NCBI RefSeq assembly: GCF_003268005.1
Contig: NZ_CP014213.1
Coordinates: forward strand, 1,488,001-1,552,000
Reading direction: 5' to 3'
Source: Methanosphaera sp. BMS
GTDB taxonomy: Archaea > Methanobacteriota > Methanobacteria > Methanobacteriales > Methanobacteriaceae
DNA length: 64,000 bases
Shown here: piece after piece, positions 49,309 through 61,837 of the stretch
How positions within the stretch are numbered: position 1 is the first letter of the stretch
Layout of the letters: the number at the start of each line of letters is the position of its first letter
The notes under the pieces: generated by a model
What the model saw: only the letters and a program-made list of their open reading frames with translations
Database searches by the model: none
Told to the model about the DNA's origin: nothing
Program-made: the position numbers and the translations under genes

Positions 49309-49521
49309 TTTAAAACCCCCATTTTTATCCTTCAAGATATACTTTATAACTATTGATTTAAATAGATTAATCATGAAATGCTGCACTATTTGAAAAAAAA
49401 TATCGTATATAAAATACTTCAACATCATGAAAAAATCTATATATTACTGGAAAAGAAAGTAAAAAATAGGCCAGAATATTATTTTTTTAGGACTGCAAAC
49501 ACAAATAGGATGAATGAAAAA

Positions 49522-50946
49522 ATGAGATATAAAACTTTTATACTGAGATTAGAGGATCGTTCCGGTCATCTGCTTGAAGTGTCCGAAATAATTTCCTCCC
49601 ATAATGCAAATATTACACGTCTTAGCTATAACAAGATAGTGGACCAGCATGCAGTATTTGTTGAAGTCTATGCTGATGAAGATAATCTGGATAGGTTATC
49701 TGATGAATTGGAAGAACATAATTTGCTATTAAAACAGGGCAGTGAAGAGGTTGACGTCTTAATCACGTTGCAAATACTGGACATACCGGGAGTTGTCAGC
49801 GATATCCTAAAAGTATTTCAAAGATATGATGTCAACATATCCTACGTGAACACACAGGAAAATGATACTTCATACCAATACTGTAAAATAGGACTTTATG
49901 CTCCTAGTTTAAAAGTTTTAAGCAATGTACTTGAAGAAATCAGTTCATTCTGTAAACTTATTGACATAAACTATGATACCCAAGAGAAGATAATTGATAA
50001 TTCAGTATTCTATCATAACTTTGCCCAGATGATGCAGAAGAAATTATCCCTGTCTCAGAAGGAAACGGATATCTTTCTTAACAATTCCAACAAGATTCTG
50101 CAGATACTTGAAGATAAAAATGAAAACTACTTTAAGACATTCCATTACATCAGGAAATTCGCCGAATTTACAGTGGATTACAAAAATGAACATTTCAATC
50201 CACGAATCAGCCATAAAAGCATATCAGATGATGTTAATCTTTATTTGATTGAGCCGCCATGTGGAAGTAACACATATATCATCGAATGTGATGGTGAATT
50301 ATTGTTTGTTGACTCCGGATTTCGCTGTTATGAGGATGAAATGAAAAAATTTTTCCACGTGCTATTTCCAGACTTCAATCAGATGAAAAAGGAGATTATC
50401 ATAACCCATGCAGACATGGATCACGTCGGAATAAACGACATATTTGATGACATATACGTTAGTGAAAATACATTCATCAACTTCAAACGAGAACATGAGG
50501 GCAAAAAGAATTTCAGGGAAGAAAACCCACTGCATGAGCCATATATAAAATTAGACAGAATCATCTCAAGATATGAACCACCTGAGCTTACAAAACTAAG
50601 GATTATTGGAAATAAGACAAACGATAAAGAATTTGAAAAGATTGGCAAATTTAATTTCAAGAATTTGTCATTTGACATCTATGAATCCAATGGAGGACAC
50701 CTTAAGGGAGAGATAATACTCGTTGAAAAGAAAATGAAAATCCTATTCACCGGTGATATCTTCGTAAACGTCAATGGATTTACCCAAGAACAATATGACT
50801 TCAATCTGCTGGCACCCTACCTGATGGGTTCGGTTAACAGTGATTCATCCAAAGCATCAGCCTGCAGAAAGATTATGTTAGATAAGTGCAGAGATTATCT
50901 GTTATGTCCGGGCCACGGTACATGGGTTGAAAATAACAAGCAGTAA
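49522..50946 (+). CDS. Two ACT-like domains fused to a metallo-beta-lactamase fold hydrolase
   Basis: The 474-residue protein starts MRYKTFILRLEDRSGHLLEV, an ACT domain, and a second ACT copy follows (LITLQILDIPGVVSDILKVF). A helical linker leads to the hydrolase domain at about residue 240. Its metal ligands appear as THADMDHVG (second His of the usual HxHxDH replaced by Asp), SNGGHLKGE, FTGDIF and CPGHGTW. ACT domains usually bind amino acids. An allosterically controlled hydrolase is inferred; the substrate is unknown. ATG at 49522 is chosen because GGATGA lies upstream at good spacing. Confidence 0.82.
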   Translation: MRYKTFILRLEDRSGHLLEVSEIISSHNANITRLSYNKIVDQHAVFVEVYADEDNLDRLSDELEEHNLLLKQGSEEVDVLITLQILDIPGVVSDILKVFQRYDVNISYVNTQENDTSYQYCKIGLYAPSLKVLSNVLEEISSFCKLIDINYDTQEKIIDNSVFYHNFAQMMQKKLSLSQKETDIFLNNSNKILQILEDKNENYFKTFHYIRKFAEFTVDYKNEHFNPRISHKSISDDVNLYLIEPPCGSNTYIIECDGELLFVDSGFRCYEDEMKKFFHVLFPDFNQMKKEIIITHADMDHVGINDIFDDIYVSENTFINFKREHEGKKNFREENPLHEPYIKLDRIISRYEPPELTKLRIIGNKTNDKEFEKIGKFNFKNLSFDIYESNGGHLKGEIILVEKKMKILFTGDIFVNVNGFTQEQYDFNLLAPYLMGSVNSDSSKASACRKIMLDKCRDYLLCPGHGTWVENNKQ

Positions 50947-51343: not shown

Positions 51344-51625
51344 ATGTTAGAGGAATATCTGCCCTTTATTGGCTTACTAATATTTGGCAACATTGAAAAC
51401 CTTATACTGGCAAGTCAGGGTGAAGTAAAGAAGGCCAACGTTTTATCATTGAGTATAATGAGTATAATTGTGGTAATATTATGGTTTATTCTAGGAACCC
51501 TATTGACTGATATAGCCCTACAGTATTCAAACATCATTAACTTTATAGGCGGACTTGCAATATTCATATTGGGTATACAGTCAGTTGTTGAAGCAATGAA
51601 AAATAAAAAAACAAAACAAGAATAA
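51344..51625 (+). CDS. Small three-helix membrane protein, first of a tandem pair
   Basis: The 93-residue protein has three hydrophobic helices: around FIGLLIFGNIENLILAS, ILWFILGTLLTDI and FIGGLAIFILGIQSV. Acidic residues E in FGNIENLILAS and D in LLTDIALQY lie in or at helices, as in cation transporters. The size is half that of a six-helix transporter of the LysE/CadD/TerC/GDT1 kind. It probably pairs with the next gene product as a heterodimer (inference). GGAG precedes the ATG. Confidence 0.72.
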   Translation: MLEEYLPFIGLLIFGNIENLILASQGEVKKANVLSLSIMSIIVVILWFILGTLLTDIALQYSNIINFIGGLAIFILGIQSVVEAMKNKKTKQE

Positions 51626-51634
51626 GGTGATGGA

Positions 51635-51913
51635 ATGAACTTAATAAAAGATTGTACTGGATTTTGGGCATTACTTATTTTTGGCAACATTGAAAATCTT
51701 ATACTGGCAAGTCAGGGTGCCATAAGTCAAGTTAACCAAATTGTACTGTTAATTTTATCTTTAATATTTGTTATCGCATGGCTGTTATTAGGAAAATATG
51801 CGACGAAATTTGCAATCAAATACGCAGATGAAATAGAGATTATTGGAGGAGCGGCAATAATATTACTGGGTATTGAGGCCATGCTTGAAGCATTTGGAAT
51901 CATAAGCATATAA
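51635..51913 (+). CDS. Small three-helix membrane protein, second of a tandem pair
   Basis: The 92-residue protein is paralogous to its upstream neighbour: it shares FGNIENLILASQG exactly, while the rest is only moderately similar (LLLGKYATKFAIKYADEIE against ILGTLLTDIALQYSNIIN). Helix layout is the same. Start at 51635 with GGTGAT overlapping the intergenic gap of nine bases, so translation is coupled. A two-subunit half-size transporter is the simplest reading; the transported ion cannot be told. Confidence 0.72.
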   Translation: MNLIKDCTGFWALLIFGNIENLILASQGAISQVNQIVLLILSLIFVIAWLLLGKYATKFAIKYADEIEIIGGAAIILLGIEAMLEAFGIISI

Positions 51914-52006: not shown

Positions 52007-52813
52007 TTAGAATAATCCATACATCTTAAGTCCAATGTAGAGTACAACTACAATGTGCATGGCATTGAGTATTCGTGCATCCATATTTTTTGACCAGCCG
52101 GCCGCATAGCCAGAGACTATCAAACTCGTGATTGTCAGAAATACAAATTGAATGATGTTCACAAAGCCCAGTGAGTATGCAGGTAAATCGGGAATGTTCC
52201 ACCCCAATATGATGTAGGTAATCAAACCCCCAAGTGATGTTGCTATTATTGAAGCGGATGAGGTTCCTATAGCCTTATGTGTAGGATATTTTAAAAGTAT
52301 TGTAAGAGCAGGTATCATTATTACCCCTCCGCCAACACCTAAAAGTCCACATAAGAGTCCTGCCGTCAATCCAAGCAGCAGATGCCCCATTCGGTTATGT
52401 GAAATATTATCATCATTATCAGGGTATTTAATCAGTATCATGTTAATGACGGCTATTATACACATCGTTGCAAATACTATCTCCAACAATCTCACATTTA
52501 CGTGAGTGGATATAACTGCACCCATTATGGCACCGATAAAACCTGGTATCATCAACTCCTTAAGATAATCCCCGACAACCATCCCGTTTTCATAATGCTT
52601 TTTGGTTGATCTTATCATGGTAACAAAGATTACGGCCAAGCTTGTGGCAAAGGACATTGGTAGGGCTATACTGGCAGGTACTCCCATAGCCAATAGCAGT
52701 GCATATTGTATGGGTGTAAGTATTATTCCACCACCAACGCCTAATAATCCTGCCATCAATCCACCGAAGCAACCGCCGATTAACAATAATACCATGTATA
52801 AAAGAAAATCCAT
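52007..52813 (-). CDS. TauE/SafE-family permease
   Basis: The 268-residue membrane protein has eight hydrophobic helices. The family's duplicated glycine motif occurs as GLMAGLLGVGGGIILTP and GLLCGLLGVGGGVIMIP. AtTauE/SafE relatives export sulfite, sulfoacetate or related organosulfur compounds; the substrate here is not known. AGGAT precedes the ATG at 52813. It is divergent from the MutS-like gene. Confidence 0.9.
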   Translation of the reverse strand: MDFLLYMVLLLIGGCFGGLMAGLLGVGGGIILTPIQYALLLAMGVPASIALPMSFATSLAVIFVTMIRSTKKHYENGMVVGDYLKELMIPGFIGAIMGAVISTHVNVRLLEIVFATMCIIAVINMILIKYPDNDDNISHNRMGHLLLGLTAGLLCGLLGVGGGVIMIPALTILLKYPTHKAIGTSSASIIATSLGGLITYIILGWNIPDLPAYSLGFVNIIQFVFLTITSLIVSGYAAGWSKNMDARILNAMHIVVVLYIGLKMYGLF

Positions 52814-56713: not shown

Positions 56714-59700
56714 TTAGTTTGTGATTTTTATCACTTTTGTCGTGTTTCTCTGTGAGTTGTATGCCAGTCTGTCCTGTGTTATGACTTCTATGCTGGTGTA
56801 GTTTTTAGATTGAGGTACCGGTATGTTTTTAAGGTTTAACACTCCATCGGTTGTGTAATAGTACTGTACATTGGTACCGTTTTTAAGTGTTACACCATTT
56901 ACTTTTATAATACACTTGTTAGGTCCTGCTACTATGTTGCCGAGGTAGTCTTTGATTGTTATTTTCATGGATAGTGTGTGTGTCTTGTTGTTTATTGTAG
57001 CGTTGGCTAGGTTGATTGTGATATTTGATCTTTCCACCTGGAAGGTTGGTGTTTTTGTCATGATGTTCTGGTAGTTTTTGTTGTAGAGTCCCACTTGTAT
57101 TGTGTGATTTTTTGGTGTTAGTGTCTGCATATCTGTTAGGCAGGATATTCCTAGTGGTATGGTGTAGTTTACTGTTGCTGTGCCGTTTATTATCTTGACT
57201 TTAAGCATTTCCCCATTTGCATCCTTGAGTGTTATACCATTTACTTTGAAGTATACATATTCATCCTGGTATTTGGTTATATTACTTGTTTTTTTACCAT
57301 TCGTTGTGTCATAGATTTTAGCCGTGATGATGAGTACTTGTCCCTGTTTGATTATCTTCTTGTTTGTTGTTACTTCTATTGTAGCGTTACGTTTGGATAT
57401 GTTTATACTTGCAGAGCCACTGGTTGATGCATTATATCTCGTTGTACCAACATAGTATGCGGTTATGTTTTTAGCGTTAGTCATATTGATATCTGGTATG
57501 ATGGTGGCTGTTGCTACTCCGTTTACGACTTTTATTTTGAGTGGGTTATTTGAACCGGTTAGTTTTCCGTTGTCTTTTATTGTTACTCCGTTTACTTTGA
57601 ATATGAGGTTTCCTTCCTTTACATTGTTGCCGTTTGTATCGGTTATTGTTGCTTTGATGGTGAGTTTTTCTCCTATTACTCCAGTAGCTGGGTTAACAGT
57701 GGTTTGTGTTTTTATCTTGTTTTTCACGGTTATTCGGATGGTTTTTGTACTGTTGTTGTATCGGCTGTCTCCAGTGTATGTTGCGGTTATGTTTTGTGTT
57801 TCAACTTTTGTCGGTGTATAGTTTTGTGTTACTTGTCCATTATTGTTTGTTTTTGCCGTTACTGTTTTTCCGTTGATATTTAGTGTTACTTGTTGATTTG
57901 CTAACTTGTTTCCATCTGCATCTGTAAGTGTTACTGTAACGGTTATTGGTGTGTTGTTTATTGGTGTATTATTGGATACCTTAAGATCTATTTTAGTATT
58001 AATTTTCTTAACTGTGATGTTGGTTGTTGCTGTGCTGTTAACGTATTGACTATCCCCTTTATAGATTGCAGTTATTGTTTGTTTTCCTAGTGTTGTTGGG
58101 GTGTATGTTTGTGTTGCTATTCCATTGCTATTGGTTTTAAGGTTGAATGTTTTACCTGCAACATTTAATGTAATATTTTGATTTGCAATTGTTTTATTAT
58201 CAGTATCGGTTAGTGTTGCTGTAATTGTAGTGCTTGTATTGTTTACTGGTGTACTGTTGGATACTTTTACTGATAGTTTGGTGTTAATTTTCTTAACGGT
58301 TATGCCGGTTGTTGCAGTGCTATTTACGTATTGGCTATTTCCATTATAAGTTGCAGTTATTGTCTGTTTTCCTAGCGTTGTTGGCGTGTATGATTGGGTT
58401 GCTATACCATTATTGTTAGTTTTAATGTTGAATGTTTTATCACTTACGTTTAGTGTAATGTTTTGGTTTGCTAGTTTGTTACCATCCGTATCTGTTAGTG
58501 TTACGGTTATGTTTATTGGCGTGTTGTTTACTGGTGTGGTGTTGGATACTTTTAGATTTATTTTTGTGTTTATCTTTTTGACTGTGATGTTGGTTGTTGC
58601 AGTACTGTTAACATATTGACTATTTCCATTATAGATTGCAGTTATTGTTTGTTTTTCCACTTTGGTTGGTGTGTATGTTTGGGTTGCTACACCATTGCTA
58701 TTGGTTTTTATGTTGAATGTTTTATCTGCAATATTTAATGTGATGTTCTGGTTTGTTAGTTTGTTACCAGTTGTATCTGTTAGTGTTACGGTTATGGTGA
58801 TTGGTGTGTTGTTTACTGGTGTGTTGTTGGATACTGTTAGTGTTAGTTTTGTGTTTGTCTTGGTTGCCGTGACTTTTGCCGTGCTGTTGGTTGACTGAGT
58901 GTATACATCAGTTCCAGGATATATTACAGTTATTGGATATTCTCCCATCTGGTCTAGTGTGAATGTTGTGTTGAATTGTCCTAGATTATTTGTGGTGGCT
59001 GGTTGTGTTGTGCCATTGACTGTTATGTTTACTGTTTCTATCGGTAATGGTTGATTATCTTTGTCTAGTAGTGTTCCGGTTATTGTAAAGTTTTGTCCTA
59101 CTTTAGTATCAGTGTCATCGACTATGAGTTTTGTTTCTATTTTTGGTGCTGTGACAAGTAGTGTTGTCGTGTTTGTATTATAGTTATTGTTTCCCGGATA
59201 TGTTGCGTTAATTAGTGTTTCATTGCTTTTTATCGTGTGTTCTATACTGGTTGTTCCGGTTATGTCTGTTGTCTTGTTGGCTGTATAATCTTTTATTGTG
59301 ATTGTAATATTTTCATCAATTATTGGCCTGTCTAGCTGATCTTTTAATGTGAATGTAATGTTTATAACATCACCTATTGCAGGATATGCGTTATCTGTGG
59401 ATATGTTGATTGTTATATTGAGTTTATCATAGAACTTATTACCTTCTATTGTAACGGTTTTAGTTGAGTTTGTGTATATTGTTCCATTATAAGTTGAAGT
59501 TTCATCTCCTTCATTGTTTTTTATTGTTGCTGTTCCATCATTTATTATGGCAGTTCCAGTCATTTGTGAAGGATTAGCTATGAAATAATTGGATTCTATA
59601 ACAACATCACCACTGCCAGTGTTGTATATTGCTCCTCCCTGTGTTGCATTGTTGTATTCAAGCATTGAATTGTTAATATTTAAACCATCAAGGTTGTATA

Positions 59701-61837
59701 TTGCACCTCCACGTCCATATTGTTGTCCTGTTGCTGTGTTGTTGTTGAGGTTGGATTGTGTTATGGTAAGATTACCCCTAATGTTGTATATTGCACCTCC
59801 ACGTCCATTTTCTTGTCCTGTTGCCGTGTTGTGGGTGAGGTTGGATTGTGTTATGTTAATAGTACCACCATCGTTGCCTATTACACCTCCATATCCATCT
59901 CCATATTTTCCTTGTCCTGTTGCCTTGTTTTGTGTGAGGTTGGATTGTGTTATGTTAATGGTACCACCGGTGTTGTGTATTGCACCTCCAATTCCATATC
60001 CATTTTGTCCTTGTCCTGTTGCGTTGTTTTGTGTGAGGTTGGAGTCGGTTATGGTAAGATTACCTGAGTTGTGTATTGCACCTCCATATCCATTGTTTTG
60101 TCCTGTTGCGTTGTTTTGTGTGAGGTTGGATTGTGTTATGGTAAGTGTACCACGGTCGTTGTATATTGCACCTCCACGTCCATTAGATCTTTGTCCTGTT
60201 GCGTTGTTTTGTGTGAGGTTGGATTGTGTTATGTTAAGAGTACCAGCGTTGTATATTGCACCTCCATATCCATAGTATTGTCCTGTTGCTGTGTTGTTTT
60301 TGAGTGTGCTGTTATTGATGGTTAAGTTTCCACTGTTGTATATTGCACCTCCATATCCATTGTTTTGTCCTGTTGCCTTGTTTTGTGTGAGGTTGGATTG
60401 TGTTATGTTAAGAGTACCAGCGTTGTTGTGTATTGCACCTCCATATCCATATCCATATTGTCCTTGTCCTGTTGCCTTGTTTTGTGTGAGGTTGGATTGT
60501 GTTATGTTAAGAGTACCACCATTGTTGTATATTGCACCTCCATATCCATCTTCTTGTCCTGTTGCCTTGTTGTGTGTGAGGTTGGAATCAAATATTGTTA
60601 AATTACTACCTGTACCATTGTTAACTATTGCTCCCCCATAATCATTTGCATTGTTATATGTTAGATTAGTGTTGTTAAGGGTTATGTTACTGTTATGGTT
60701 GTATATTGCTCCTCCATGTGTTGCGTTGTTGTATTCAAGTATTGAATTGTCAATGTTAATAGTACCACCATAGTCGTTGGATATTGCACCTCCATATCCA
60801 TCTTCTTGTCCTGTTGCTCTGTTGTATGTGAGGTTGGATTGTGTTATGTTAAGAGTACCATCGTTGTATATTGCTCCTCCATATCCATTTGTTTGTCCTG
60901 TTACGGTGTTGTTGTTGAGGTTGGATTCGGTTATGGTAAGATTACCCCCATAGTAGTTGTATATTGCACCTCCCCATCCATCATATGTTTGTCCTGTTGC
61001 CTTGTTGTGTGTGAGGTTGGAGCCTGTTATGTTAAGATTACCAGAGTTGGATATTGCACCTCCATATCCATAGTATTGTCCTGTTGCTGTGTTATTGTTG
61101 AGGTTGGATTGTGTTATGGTAAGAGTACCCATGTTGAATATTGCACCTCCTTCTGTATATCCTGTTGCTTGGTTGTTTTCTAGTGTGGAGTCTGTGATAG
61201 TTAATTTTCCATAATTGTGTATTGCTCCTCCTCCGTTACCTGATGTCGATTCTGTAGTTGTTACTGTATTGTTTATGAGTGTGCTGTTGTTTATTATTAA
61301 ATTTCCACCATTTAATATTGCACCCCACCATCCATCATTTTTAGAGTTTTTTATTGTGATGTTTTTTAGAATCACGGAAGACCCCCGCTCAATCTCGAAT
61401 ACATGGTTTTGGTTTCCGTCTATGCTTTGTCCTTTACCGTCAATTGTAATTGTTATTGGTTGATTAAATGTAATTGTACCTTCGGCTGTATATGTTCCTT
61501 CATCTAATGTTATGTTTGTATCTTGTGTTGCATCAGTTATTATGCTGTTAAGTTCTATCCATGAGCTTACTGTTGTATCTTTTTTTAGGTTATTTGTGTT
61601 TTTTTGTATGTTTTTTGTGGTTTTTGTCTGATTTGTATTCGTTTTTTGTTTTATATTTTCTACTGTATTTGTATCACTTGGTGATACTGTTGATTTTTCT
61701 TGTACTGCTTTTTCAAGTATTAGGGGTGTATCGCTAGTGGGTGTGTCTGCTTCGGTGGATACTTCATTTGCCGTTGCAACTCCCACTAAGAGTACTAATA
61801 CTATGACAAATAACAGTACTTCTTTTATTTTTTTCAT
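56714..61837 (-). CDS. Adhesin-like surface protein: beta-helix repeats plus Ig-like repeats
   Basis: This 1707-residue secreted protein starts with a signal peptide (KKIKEVLLFVIVLVLLVGVA). A Thr/Asn/Lys-rich disordered stretch runs to about residue 90. A right-handed beta-helix region (about 145-750) has some 20 coils of the form GGAIYN-x-GTLNITQSNLTQN-x-ATGQ. Then come Ig-like (Big_3-type) domains: about four near-identical 97-residue units (986-1369) with the string NNTPITITVTLTD, followed by more divergent ones. It has dozens of N-x-S/T sequons. No C-terminal membrane helix or obvious pseudomurein-binding domain is seen. GGAGG precedes the ATG. Such proteins are the main adhesin family of gut Methanobacteriales. 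Confidence 0.93.
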   Translation of the reverse strand: MKKIKEVLLFVIVLVLLVGVATANEVSTEADTPTSDTPLILEKAVQEKSTVSPSDTNTVENIKQKTNTNQTKTTKNIQKNTNNLKKDTTVSSWIELNSIITDATQDTNITLDEGTYTAEGTITFNQPITITIDGKGQSIDGNQNHVFEIERGSSVILKNITIKNSKNDGWWGAILNGGNLIINNSTLINNTVTTTESTSGNGGGAIHNYGKLTITDSTLENNQATGYTEGGAIFNMGTLTITQSNLNNNTATGQYYGYGGAISNSGNLNITGSNLTHNKATGQTYDGWGGAIYNYYGGNLTITESNLNNNTVTGQTNGYGGAIYNDGTLNITQSNLTYNRATGQEDGYGGAISNDYGGTINIDNSILEYNNATHGGAIYNHNSNITLNNTNLTYNNANDYGGAIVNNGTGSNLTIFDSNLTHNKATGQEDGYGGAIYNNGGTLNITQSNLTQNKATGQGQYGYGYGGAIHNNAGTLNITQSNLTQNKATGQNNGYGGAIYNSGNLTINNSTLKNNTATGQYYGYGGAIYNAGTLNITQSNLTQNNATGQRSNGRGGAIYNDRGTLTITQSNLTQNNATGQNNGYGGAIHNSGNLTITDSNLTQNNATGQGQNGYGIGGAIHNTGGTINITQSNLTQNKATGQGKYGDGYGGVIGNDGGTINITQSNLTHNTATGQENGRGGAIYNIRGNLTITQSNLNNNTATGQQYGRGGAIYNLDGLNINNSMLEYNNATQGGAIYNTGSGDVVIESNYFIANPSQMTGTAIINDGTATIKNNEGDETSTYNGTIYTNSTKTVTIEGNKFYDKLNITINISTDNAYPAIGDVINITFTLKDQLDRPIIDENITITIKDYTANKTTDITGTTSIEHTIKSNETLINATYPGNNNYNTNTTTLLVTAPKIETKLIVDDTDTKVGQNFTITGTLLDKDNQPLPIETVNITVNGTTQPATTNNLGQFNTTFTLDQMGEYPITVIYPGTDVYTQSTNSTAKVTATKTNTKLTLTVSNNTPVNNTPITITVTLTDTTGNKLTNQNITLNIADKTFNIKTNSNGVATQTYTPTKVEKQTITAIYNGNSQYVNSTATTNITVKKINTKINLKVSNTTPVNNTPINITVTLTDTDGNKLANQNITLNVSDKTFNIKTNNNGIATQSYTPTTLGKQTITATYNGNSQYVNSTATTGITVKKINTKLSVKVSNSTPVNNTSTTITATLTDTDNKTIANQNITLNVAGKTFNLKTNSNGIATQTYTPTTLGKQTITAIYKGDSQYVNSTATTNITVKKINTKIDLKVSNNTPINNTPITVTVTLTDADGNKLANQQVTLNINGKTVTAKTNNNGQVTQNYTPTKVETQNITATYTGDSRYNNSTKTIRITVKNKIKTQTTVNPATGVIGEKLTIKATITDTNGNNVKEGNLIFKVNGVTIKDNGKLTGSNNPLKIKVVNGVATATIIPDINMTNAKNITAYYVGTTRYNASTSGSASINISKRNATIEVTTNKKIIKQGQVLIITAKIYDTTNGKKTSNITKYQDEYVYFKVNGITLKDANGEMLKVKIINGTATVNYTIPLGISCLTDMQTLTPKNHTIQVGLYNKNYQNIMTKTPTFQVERSNITINLANATINNKTHTLSMKITIKDYLGNIVAGPNKCIIKVNGVTLKNGTNVQYYYTTDGVLNLKNIPVPQSKNYTSIEVITQDRLAYNSQRNTTKVIKITN
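57730..58880 (-). repeat. Tandem Ig-like domain repeats within the adhesin gene
   Basis: Similar DNA segments recur every 288-295 bases; unit boundaries are near 57,990, 58,285, 58,570 and 58,855. Each encodes about 97 residues and shares long near-identical stretches, suggesting recent duplication or gene conversion. Confidence 0.8.
59590..61260 (-). repeat. Beta-helix coil repeats within the adhesin gene
   Basis: Nineteen GGAI (one GGVI) coils can be counted, spaced mostly 75-95 bases apart. Strings such as TTGGATTGTGTTATG and TATTGCACCTCCA (plus strand) recur many times. The repeats make long spurious open frames on the opposite strand. Confidence 0.85.

What the first reader, a model, noticed from the sequence alone, without database searches (positions are those of the whole stretch)
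51344..51913. Tandem half-transporters sharing a 39/40-identical DNA block
Positions 51383-51422 and 51680-51719 match at 39 of 40 bases, including synonymous sites, while flanking coding DNA has diverged. The block encodes FGNIENLILASQG. This pattern suggests gene conversion or a nucleic-acid-level constraint. The products look like two halves of a six-helix transporter, a possible snapshot of evolution before gene fusion.
Basis: partly seen in the sequence, partly recalled or inferred. Interest (0 to 1): 0.6.

Follow-up and report, generated by a model that had tools for sequence, protein, structure and literature searches.

The report
Paired half-transporter genes of gut methanogens
Two neighbouring genes of a gut methane-producing archaeon each encode half of what is probably a metal-ion exporter, the halves sitting in opposite directions in the membrane; the almost identical DNA stretch they share is a conserved working motif whose two copies seem to have been locally homogenised.

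Summary
In detail: 51383-51422 and 51680-51719 match at 39/40. The two 3-TM proteins (93 and 92 aa) form an uncharacterised family with no match above any Pfam or NCBIfam cut-off. It was found in 104 of 152 genomes of the phylum, all in four genera of one family (named loci: Methanosphaera, Methanobrevibacter), almost always as adjacent pairs. The block encodes the family's invariant GNIENL motif, which AlphaFold places in a broken first helix. Upstream (A) and downstream (B) copies form two separate clades (99/97), so the duplication is older than these genera. Synonymous codons in the block agree more within a genome than between genomes (0.68 v 0.51 in 12 orthologous pairs; smaller excess outside), but are not conserved across species: short-tract gene conversion fits, a nucleic-acid constraint does not. 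Charge bias is opposite in 85/85 A and 85/85 B proteins, predicting fixed antiparallel orientation, and one relative carries a natural in-frame A-B fusion. Profile comparison ranks the 3+3-TM manganese exporter MntP above decoys, but no Pfam cut-off is met. Best reading: a split, antiparallel, MntP-like cation exporter. Substrate and dimer are inferred. The architecture has precedents (SMR and UPF0016 gene pairs).

The parts
51344..51625 (+). subunit A: 93 aa, 3 TM, predicted N-out/C-in (K+R in loop 1 and C-terminus)
51635..51913 (+). subunit B: 92 aa, 3 TM, predicted N-in/C-out (K+R in N-terminus and loop 2); starts 9 nt after the A stop, in the same frame
51383..51422 (+). block copy 1 (39/40 identical), FGNIENLILASQG, broken-helix TM1 motif of A
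51680..51719 (+). block copy 2, FGNIENLILASQG, broken-helix TM1 motif of B
51374..51422 (+). extended 49-nt repeat, copy 1 (94% to 51671-51719), possible conversion tract
51671..51719 (+). extended 49-nt repeat, copy 2

Best explanation
The two genes encode the obligate halves of one small secondary transporter. A inserts N-out/C-in and B N-in/C-out, and they pack as an antiparallel A-B heterodimer equivalent to a 3+3-TM exporter of the MntP / LysE-superfamily type. Each half carries one copy of G-N-I-E-N-L at a break in its first helix; the acidic E takes the place of the motif Asp in TM1 and TM4 of MntP, so the two motifs probably face each other across the pseudo-twofold axis and form the ion site. 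Most likely cargo: Mn2+ or another divalent cation, exported. The pair arose by one duplication before the host-associated genera split; the motif DNA is occasionally homogenised between the adjacent copies by short gene conversion, which in this genome has left 39/40 identity. Shown: pairing, ancient A/B split, opposite charge bias, natural fusion, motif invariance, local synonymous excess. Inferred: dimer, transport, cargo, direction, conversion mechanism.
For: Family and pairing: 104/152 genomes, 99 of the 104 with an even number of copies, all in 4 genera of one family; only Methanosphaera and Methanobrevibacter among 17 named loci from the 84,980-species collection. A and B each one side of a branch, 99/97, 100% of bootstraps. 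Charge bias: even loops > odd in 85/85 A, odd > even in 85/85 B. Natural fusion L115/L122 (G148), 196 aa from its ATG, linker of about 25 residues without a TM helix and no start codon left for B; near relatives G096, G117 and G153 keep two genes. AlphaFold2 of the fusion: pLDDT 86, pTM 0.80, TM1 and TM4 each broken at the motif. Profile-profile v MntP: 91%, E 1e-6, 131 columns; reversed control 0.3%; E of GNIEN aligns with D of SIDAF in the second half. MntP proteins rank 1 and 2 of 41 mostly membrane proteins and first among neighbour-derived membrane clusters (27.6 v 19.2 for the next). Conversion: within-genome block identity 0.683 v 0.506 between (P < 1e-4), outside 0.566 v 0.503 (P = 0.003). 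The superfamily paper gives MntP as 3+3 TM with a fully conserved D in TMS1 and TMS4 (PMC4608589).
Against: No Pfam cut-off met; Mntp hits one of 22 members at E 9e-4, TerC four members at E >= 0.08, while an unrelated family (PF23021) hits ten at E down to 4e-4. Half profiles alone are weak against MntP (19% for A+B pooled). Foldseek finds nothing at E <= 0.001 in PDB or BFVD. GDT1 and TerC give no profile signal. The genome already has an ordinary MntP, no Mn riboswitch was found at the loci tested, and neighbours are not conserved, so Mn is not established. The pair-level conversion signal is only marginal after correction for 34 pairs.
Confidence: 0.6

Rival explanations
1. Antiparallel paired transporter as above, but the cargo is not a metal ion (for example an amino acid or a small organic cation); the affinity to MntP reflects only the shared LysE-superfamily fold.
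For: LysE-superfamily members carry metals, amino acids, lipids and electrons (PMC4608589); no metal-linked gene or riboswitch is conserved beside the pair; the motif acid is E, not the D of MntP and CadD.
Against: MntP is the single best profile match among the families compared; CadD, LysE and NicO were not compared as profiles.
Confidence: 0.25
2. The 39/40 identity is not gene conversion but strong protein constraint plus chance agreement of codons (or shared local codon bias).
For: The 13 residues are under strong protein constraint in every copy; 34 pairs were examined and the best run P for the window is 0.0095 uncorrected; synonymous agreement within a genome is also slightly raised outside the block (0.566 v 0.503).
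Against: P(>=12/13) = 6e-5 under the window's codon usage, about 0.002 after 34 pairs; within-genome excess in the block persists without the window pair (0.661 v 0.522, P = 2e-4) and is larger than outside; both window copies use Ser AGT, with AGC/AGT in G013 the only other AGY copies, while the second pair of the same genome uses TCA/TGT.
Confidence: 0.3
3. A recent tandem duplication with the flanks diverging fast.
For: Adjacent, same strand, 46% protein identity.
Against: A and B are separate clades present in four genera; the duplication is far older than the block similarity.
Confidence: 0.02
4. The small proteins are not transporters but a paired membrane scaffold, sensor or chaperone (TerC-like metalation helper).
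For: TerC proteins of the same superfamily metalate secreted enzymes (PMC10550928 abstract); TerC is a weak hit over both halves in some members.
Against: No TerC profile signal; no TerC accessory domain; compact 3+3 TM only.
Confidence: 0.12

Closest known systems
MntP (Mn2+ exporter, PF02659, TC 2.A.107)
   Same: 3+3 TM, about 190 aa when fused, acidic motif in TM1 and TM4 (SIDAF v GNIENL), similar TM3/TM6 (IEI-GG-LI-IG), best profile match
   Different: two genes instead of one (except in G148), E-N instead of D-A, no Pfam cut-off met, coexists with a true MntP in the same genome
UPF0016/GDT1 single-domain gene pairs of cyanobacteria
   Same: adjacent genes for 3-TM halves with opposite K+R bias; singleton, pair and fusion states (PMC4067407)
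   Different: motif E-x-G-D-K-T absent, no profile signal to GDT1; in that paper paired genes are known only from cyanobacteria
SMR pairs and DUF606 pairs (dual-topology evolution)
   Same: pairs with fixed opposite orientation made by duplication of a dual-topology ancestor (families named in PMC4067407; SMR pairs from general knowledge)
   Different: 4- and 5-TM folds, unrelated sequences; no singleton form of the present family was seen
CadD (PF03596) and TerC (PF03741) of the LysE superfamily
   Same: superfamily TM1/TM4 acid-containing motif; conserved D in TMS1 and TMS4 shared by CadD and MntP, Asn in the CadD TMS4 motif
   Different: no CadD or TerC in this genome; TerC has no profile signal; CadD profile not compared

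Membership tests
MntP (PF02659) | score above the Pfam gathering cut-off (24.4 bits) | tested here: not met
   neither window protein hits Mntp at E <= 10; one of 22 joined members hits at E 9e-4, others none
MntP (PF02659) | profile-level homology | tested here: inconclusive
   hhalign 91%, E 1e-6 against reversed 0.3% and decoys; halves alone weak
MntP (PF02659) | fully conserved Asp in TM1 and TM4 | tested here: not met
   Glu (GNIENL) is invariant at the aligned place
MntP (PF02659) | 3+3 TM in antiparallel repeat | tested here: met
   3 TM each, opposite charge bias, natural fusion; by prediction only
MntP (PF02659) | exports Mn2+ | not testable with these tools
   needs an assay
GDT1/UPF0016 (PF01169) | E-x-G-D-(K/R)-(S/T) motif | tested here: not met
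   motif absent from all copies; profile 0.3%
TerC (PF03741) | Pfam cut-off (27.8 bits) | tested here: not met
   13.1 bits in the fusion
LysE superfamily | 3-TM repeat with significant similarity to a member family | tested here: inconclusive
   MntP profile similarity only; no fold match in PDB
paired antiparallel half-transporter (functional type) | adjacent paralogues with fixed opposite K+R bias | tested here: met
   85/85 and 85/85
paired antiparallel half-transporter (functional type) | interdependent function as a heterodimer | not testable with these tools
   needs co-expression and complementation

The most novel reading that the evidence does not exclude
A previously undescribed family of split LysE-superfamily (MntP-like) exporters, confined to host-associated methanogens, that has stayed for a long time at the antiparallel two-gene stage, with repeated small conversion tracts keeping the two ion-site motifs alike at the DNA level, and with at least one independent fusion to a six-helix protein.
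Probability: 0.4. Interest if true: 0.6.

Novelty: new variant of a known kind. Interest (0 to 1): 0.45.

Why it matters
Inverted-repeat transporters are thought to have evolved from dual-topology proteins via oppositely oriented gene pairs to fused genes. The superfamily paper consulted proposes a 3-TM precursor for the LysE superfamily and, in the passages read, describes only full-length members. This family gives dozens of natural pairs with fixed opposite bias and one natural fusion in a relative, in an archaeal lineage, so the pair-to-fusion step can be tested by exchange of natural parts. It would also give a function to an unannotated gene pair of gut methanogens, possibly in metal homeostasis.

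Tried and rejected
Riboswitch or other RNA element beside the genes: none. Pfam, NCBIfam and PDB sequence searches: no significant family. GDT1, by analogy the first guess, and TerC: no profile signal. Weak Pfam/NCBIfam hits (SemiSWEET, ThiC, PGAP2IP, SpoIIIAC) looked like generic membrane-helix matches and were not pursued. Fold search in PDB and BFVD: nothing significant. Conserved neighbourhood: none common to the orthologous pairs. An apparent fusion in G011 (L070) is a run of N, not a fusion. First half-profile runs contained the unsplit fusion; repeated cleanly. Plasmids hold no relative; 144 genomes of two other archaeal phyla gave none, but without a positive control there.

Full report
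Observation. The two stretches match at 39 of 40 bases and the repeat extends to 49 nt at 94%. They lie in two adjacent same-strand genes of 93 and 92 codons (51344-51625 and 51635-51913). The proteins are 46% identical. In the 13 block codons 12 are identical, against 10 of 27 same-residue codons elsewhere in the pair. Window codon usage gives 5.1 expected matches and P = 6e-5 for 12 or more.

What it is. The genome is a 2.87-Mb archaeal chromosome; the named loci that hold relatives are Methanosphaera and Methanobrevibacter. It carries a second pair at 591159-591685. With a profile, 104 of 152 genomes of the phylum have the family, all in four genera of one family, and 99 of the 104 have an even number of copies. 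No match above the curated cut-off exists in Pfam or NCBIfam, and none in the PDB by sequence. The copies aligned all hold G-N-I-E-N-L, and the block is this motif. In the AlphaFold model of the natural fusion (pLDDT 86, pTM 0.80) TM1 and TM4 are interrupted at the motif.

Why the DNA is alike. A tree separates all A from all B (99/97; 100% of bootstrap trees), so the duplication is older than the genera and the similarity is not recent duplication. The block's synonymous sites are not conserved between genomes (A-A 0.55, B-B 0.58, about the same as outside), which speaks against a nucleic-acid constraint. In the 12 orthologous pairs, A and B of the same genome agree at 0.683 of block codons against 0.506 between genomes (P < 1e-4), while outside the block the figures are 0.566 and 0.503 (P = 0.003); without the window pair the block excess stays (0.661 v 0.522, P = 2e-4). 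The permutation does not model phylogeny or genome codon bias fully; the figures outside the block are the control for that, and the second pair of the same genome shares only 2-3 of 11 block codons with the window pair. Other pairs in the family (group b) show no significant block excess (0.587 v 0.561). So local concerted evolution is likely in this orthologous group and strongest in this genome, but for a single pair it is marginal after correction.

How it works. K+R counts put the positive charges in loop 1 and the C-terminus of A and in the N-terminus and loop 2 of B, without exception in 85 distinct pairs: fixed opposite topology under the positive-inside rule. G148 has A and B in one reading frame with a linker of about 25 residues and no TM helix; relatives G096, G117 and G153 have two genes at that place, and the junction differs by several changes with the B start codon gone, so one sequencing error cannot explain it. 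A fusion without an extra helix requires the two halves to be antiparallel. The window pair itself was modelled as a read-through of the A stop (pLDDT 74); such a model cannot by itself prove a heterodimer.

Which family. Comparison of the fused profile with a MntP profile gives 91% and E 1e-6 over 131 columns; the reversed profile gives 0.3%. MntP sequences rank first and second of 41 mostly membrane proteins, and in clusters drawn blindly from the neighbourhoods the MntP cluster ranks first (27.6 v 19.2). E of GNIEN aligns with D of SIDAF. GDT1 and TerC give nothing. These pairwise E-values are not calibrated against a database, half profiles are weak, Pfam cut-offs are not met and Foldseek finds no fold match. 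I therefore say 'works like and is probably a remote relative of MntP', not 'is a MntP'. The host genome has an ordinary MntP elsewhere (G000:C1:548145-548591). In one genome (G015) MntP genes lie 1.1 and 1.5 kb from two of its pairs on the same strand, suggestive only.

Known context. Paired, oppositely biased half-genes and their fusions are described for UPF0016 and DUF606, and the SMR family is the classic dual-topology case (PMC4067407). The LysE superfamily is thought to descend from a 3-TM precursor, and the passages read of that paper mention no half-size members (PMC4608589). The present family adds an archaeal set of pairs to this picture; the kind is known, the family and its probable superfamily placement are new as far as the tools show.

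Noticed in passing
L053:1368-1916 and L056:5537-5974 (genome G015): MntP genes lie 1.1 and 1.5 kb downstream of two A-B pairs on the same strand; the second one is cut by a TAG. Not seen beside other pairs.
   Followed up: partly
L115:1372-2100 (-): Natural A-B fusion with an acidic linker (VKEEEEIIDEYGEN), only one clean case among 67 genomes of its genus.
   Followed up: yes
L064:3203-4236 (-), genome G002: Three family genes in a row: A, a B-type gene and a further copy that looks B-type.
   Followed up: no
window 49378-50946 (+): Protein with two ACT domains followed by a metallo-beta-lactamase fold, upstream of the pair; an unusual domain pairing, also beside the pair in one other genome.
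   Followed up: no
window 52007-52813 (-): TauE/SafE-type permease facing the pair, kept beside it only in the closest relative (L034/L052).
   Followed up: no
window 56714-61837 (-): 1707-aa adhesin-like repeat protein with many near-identical ITQSNLTHN-type repeats.
   Followed up: no
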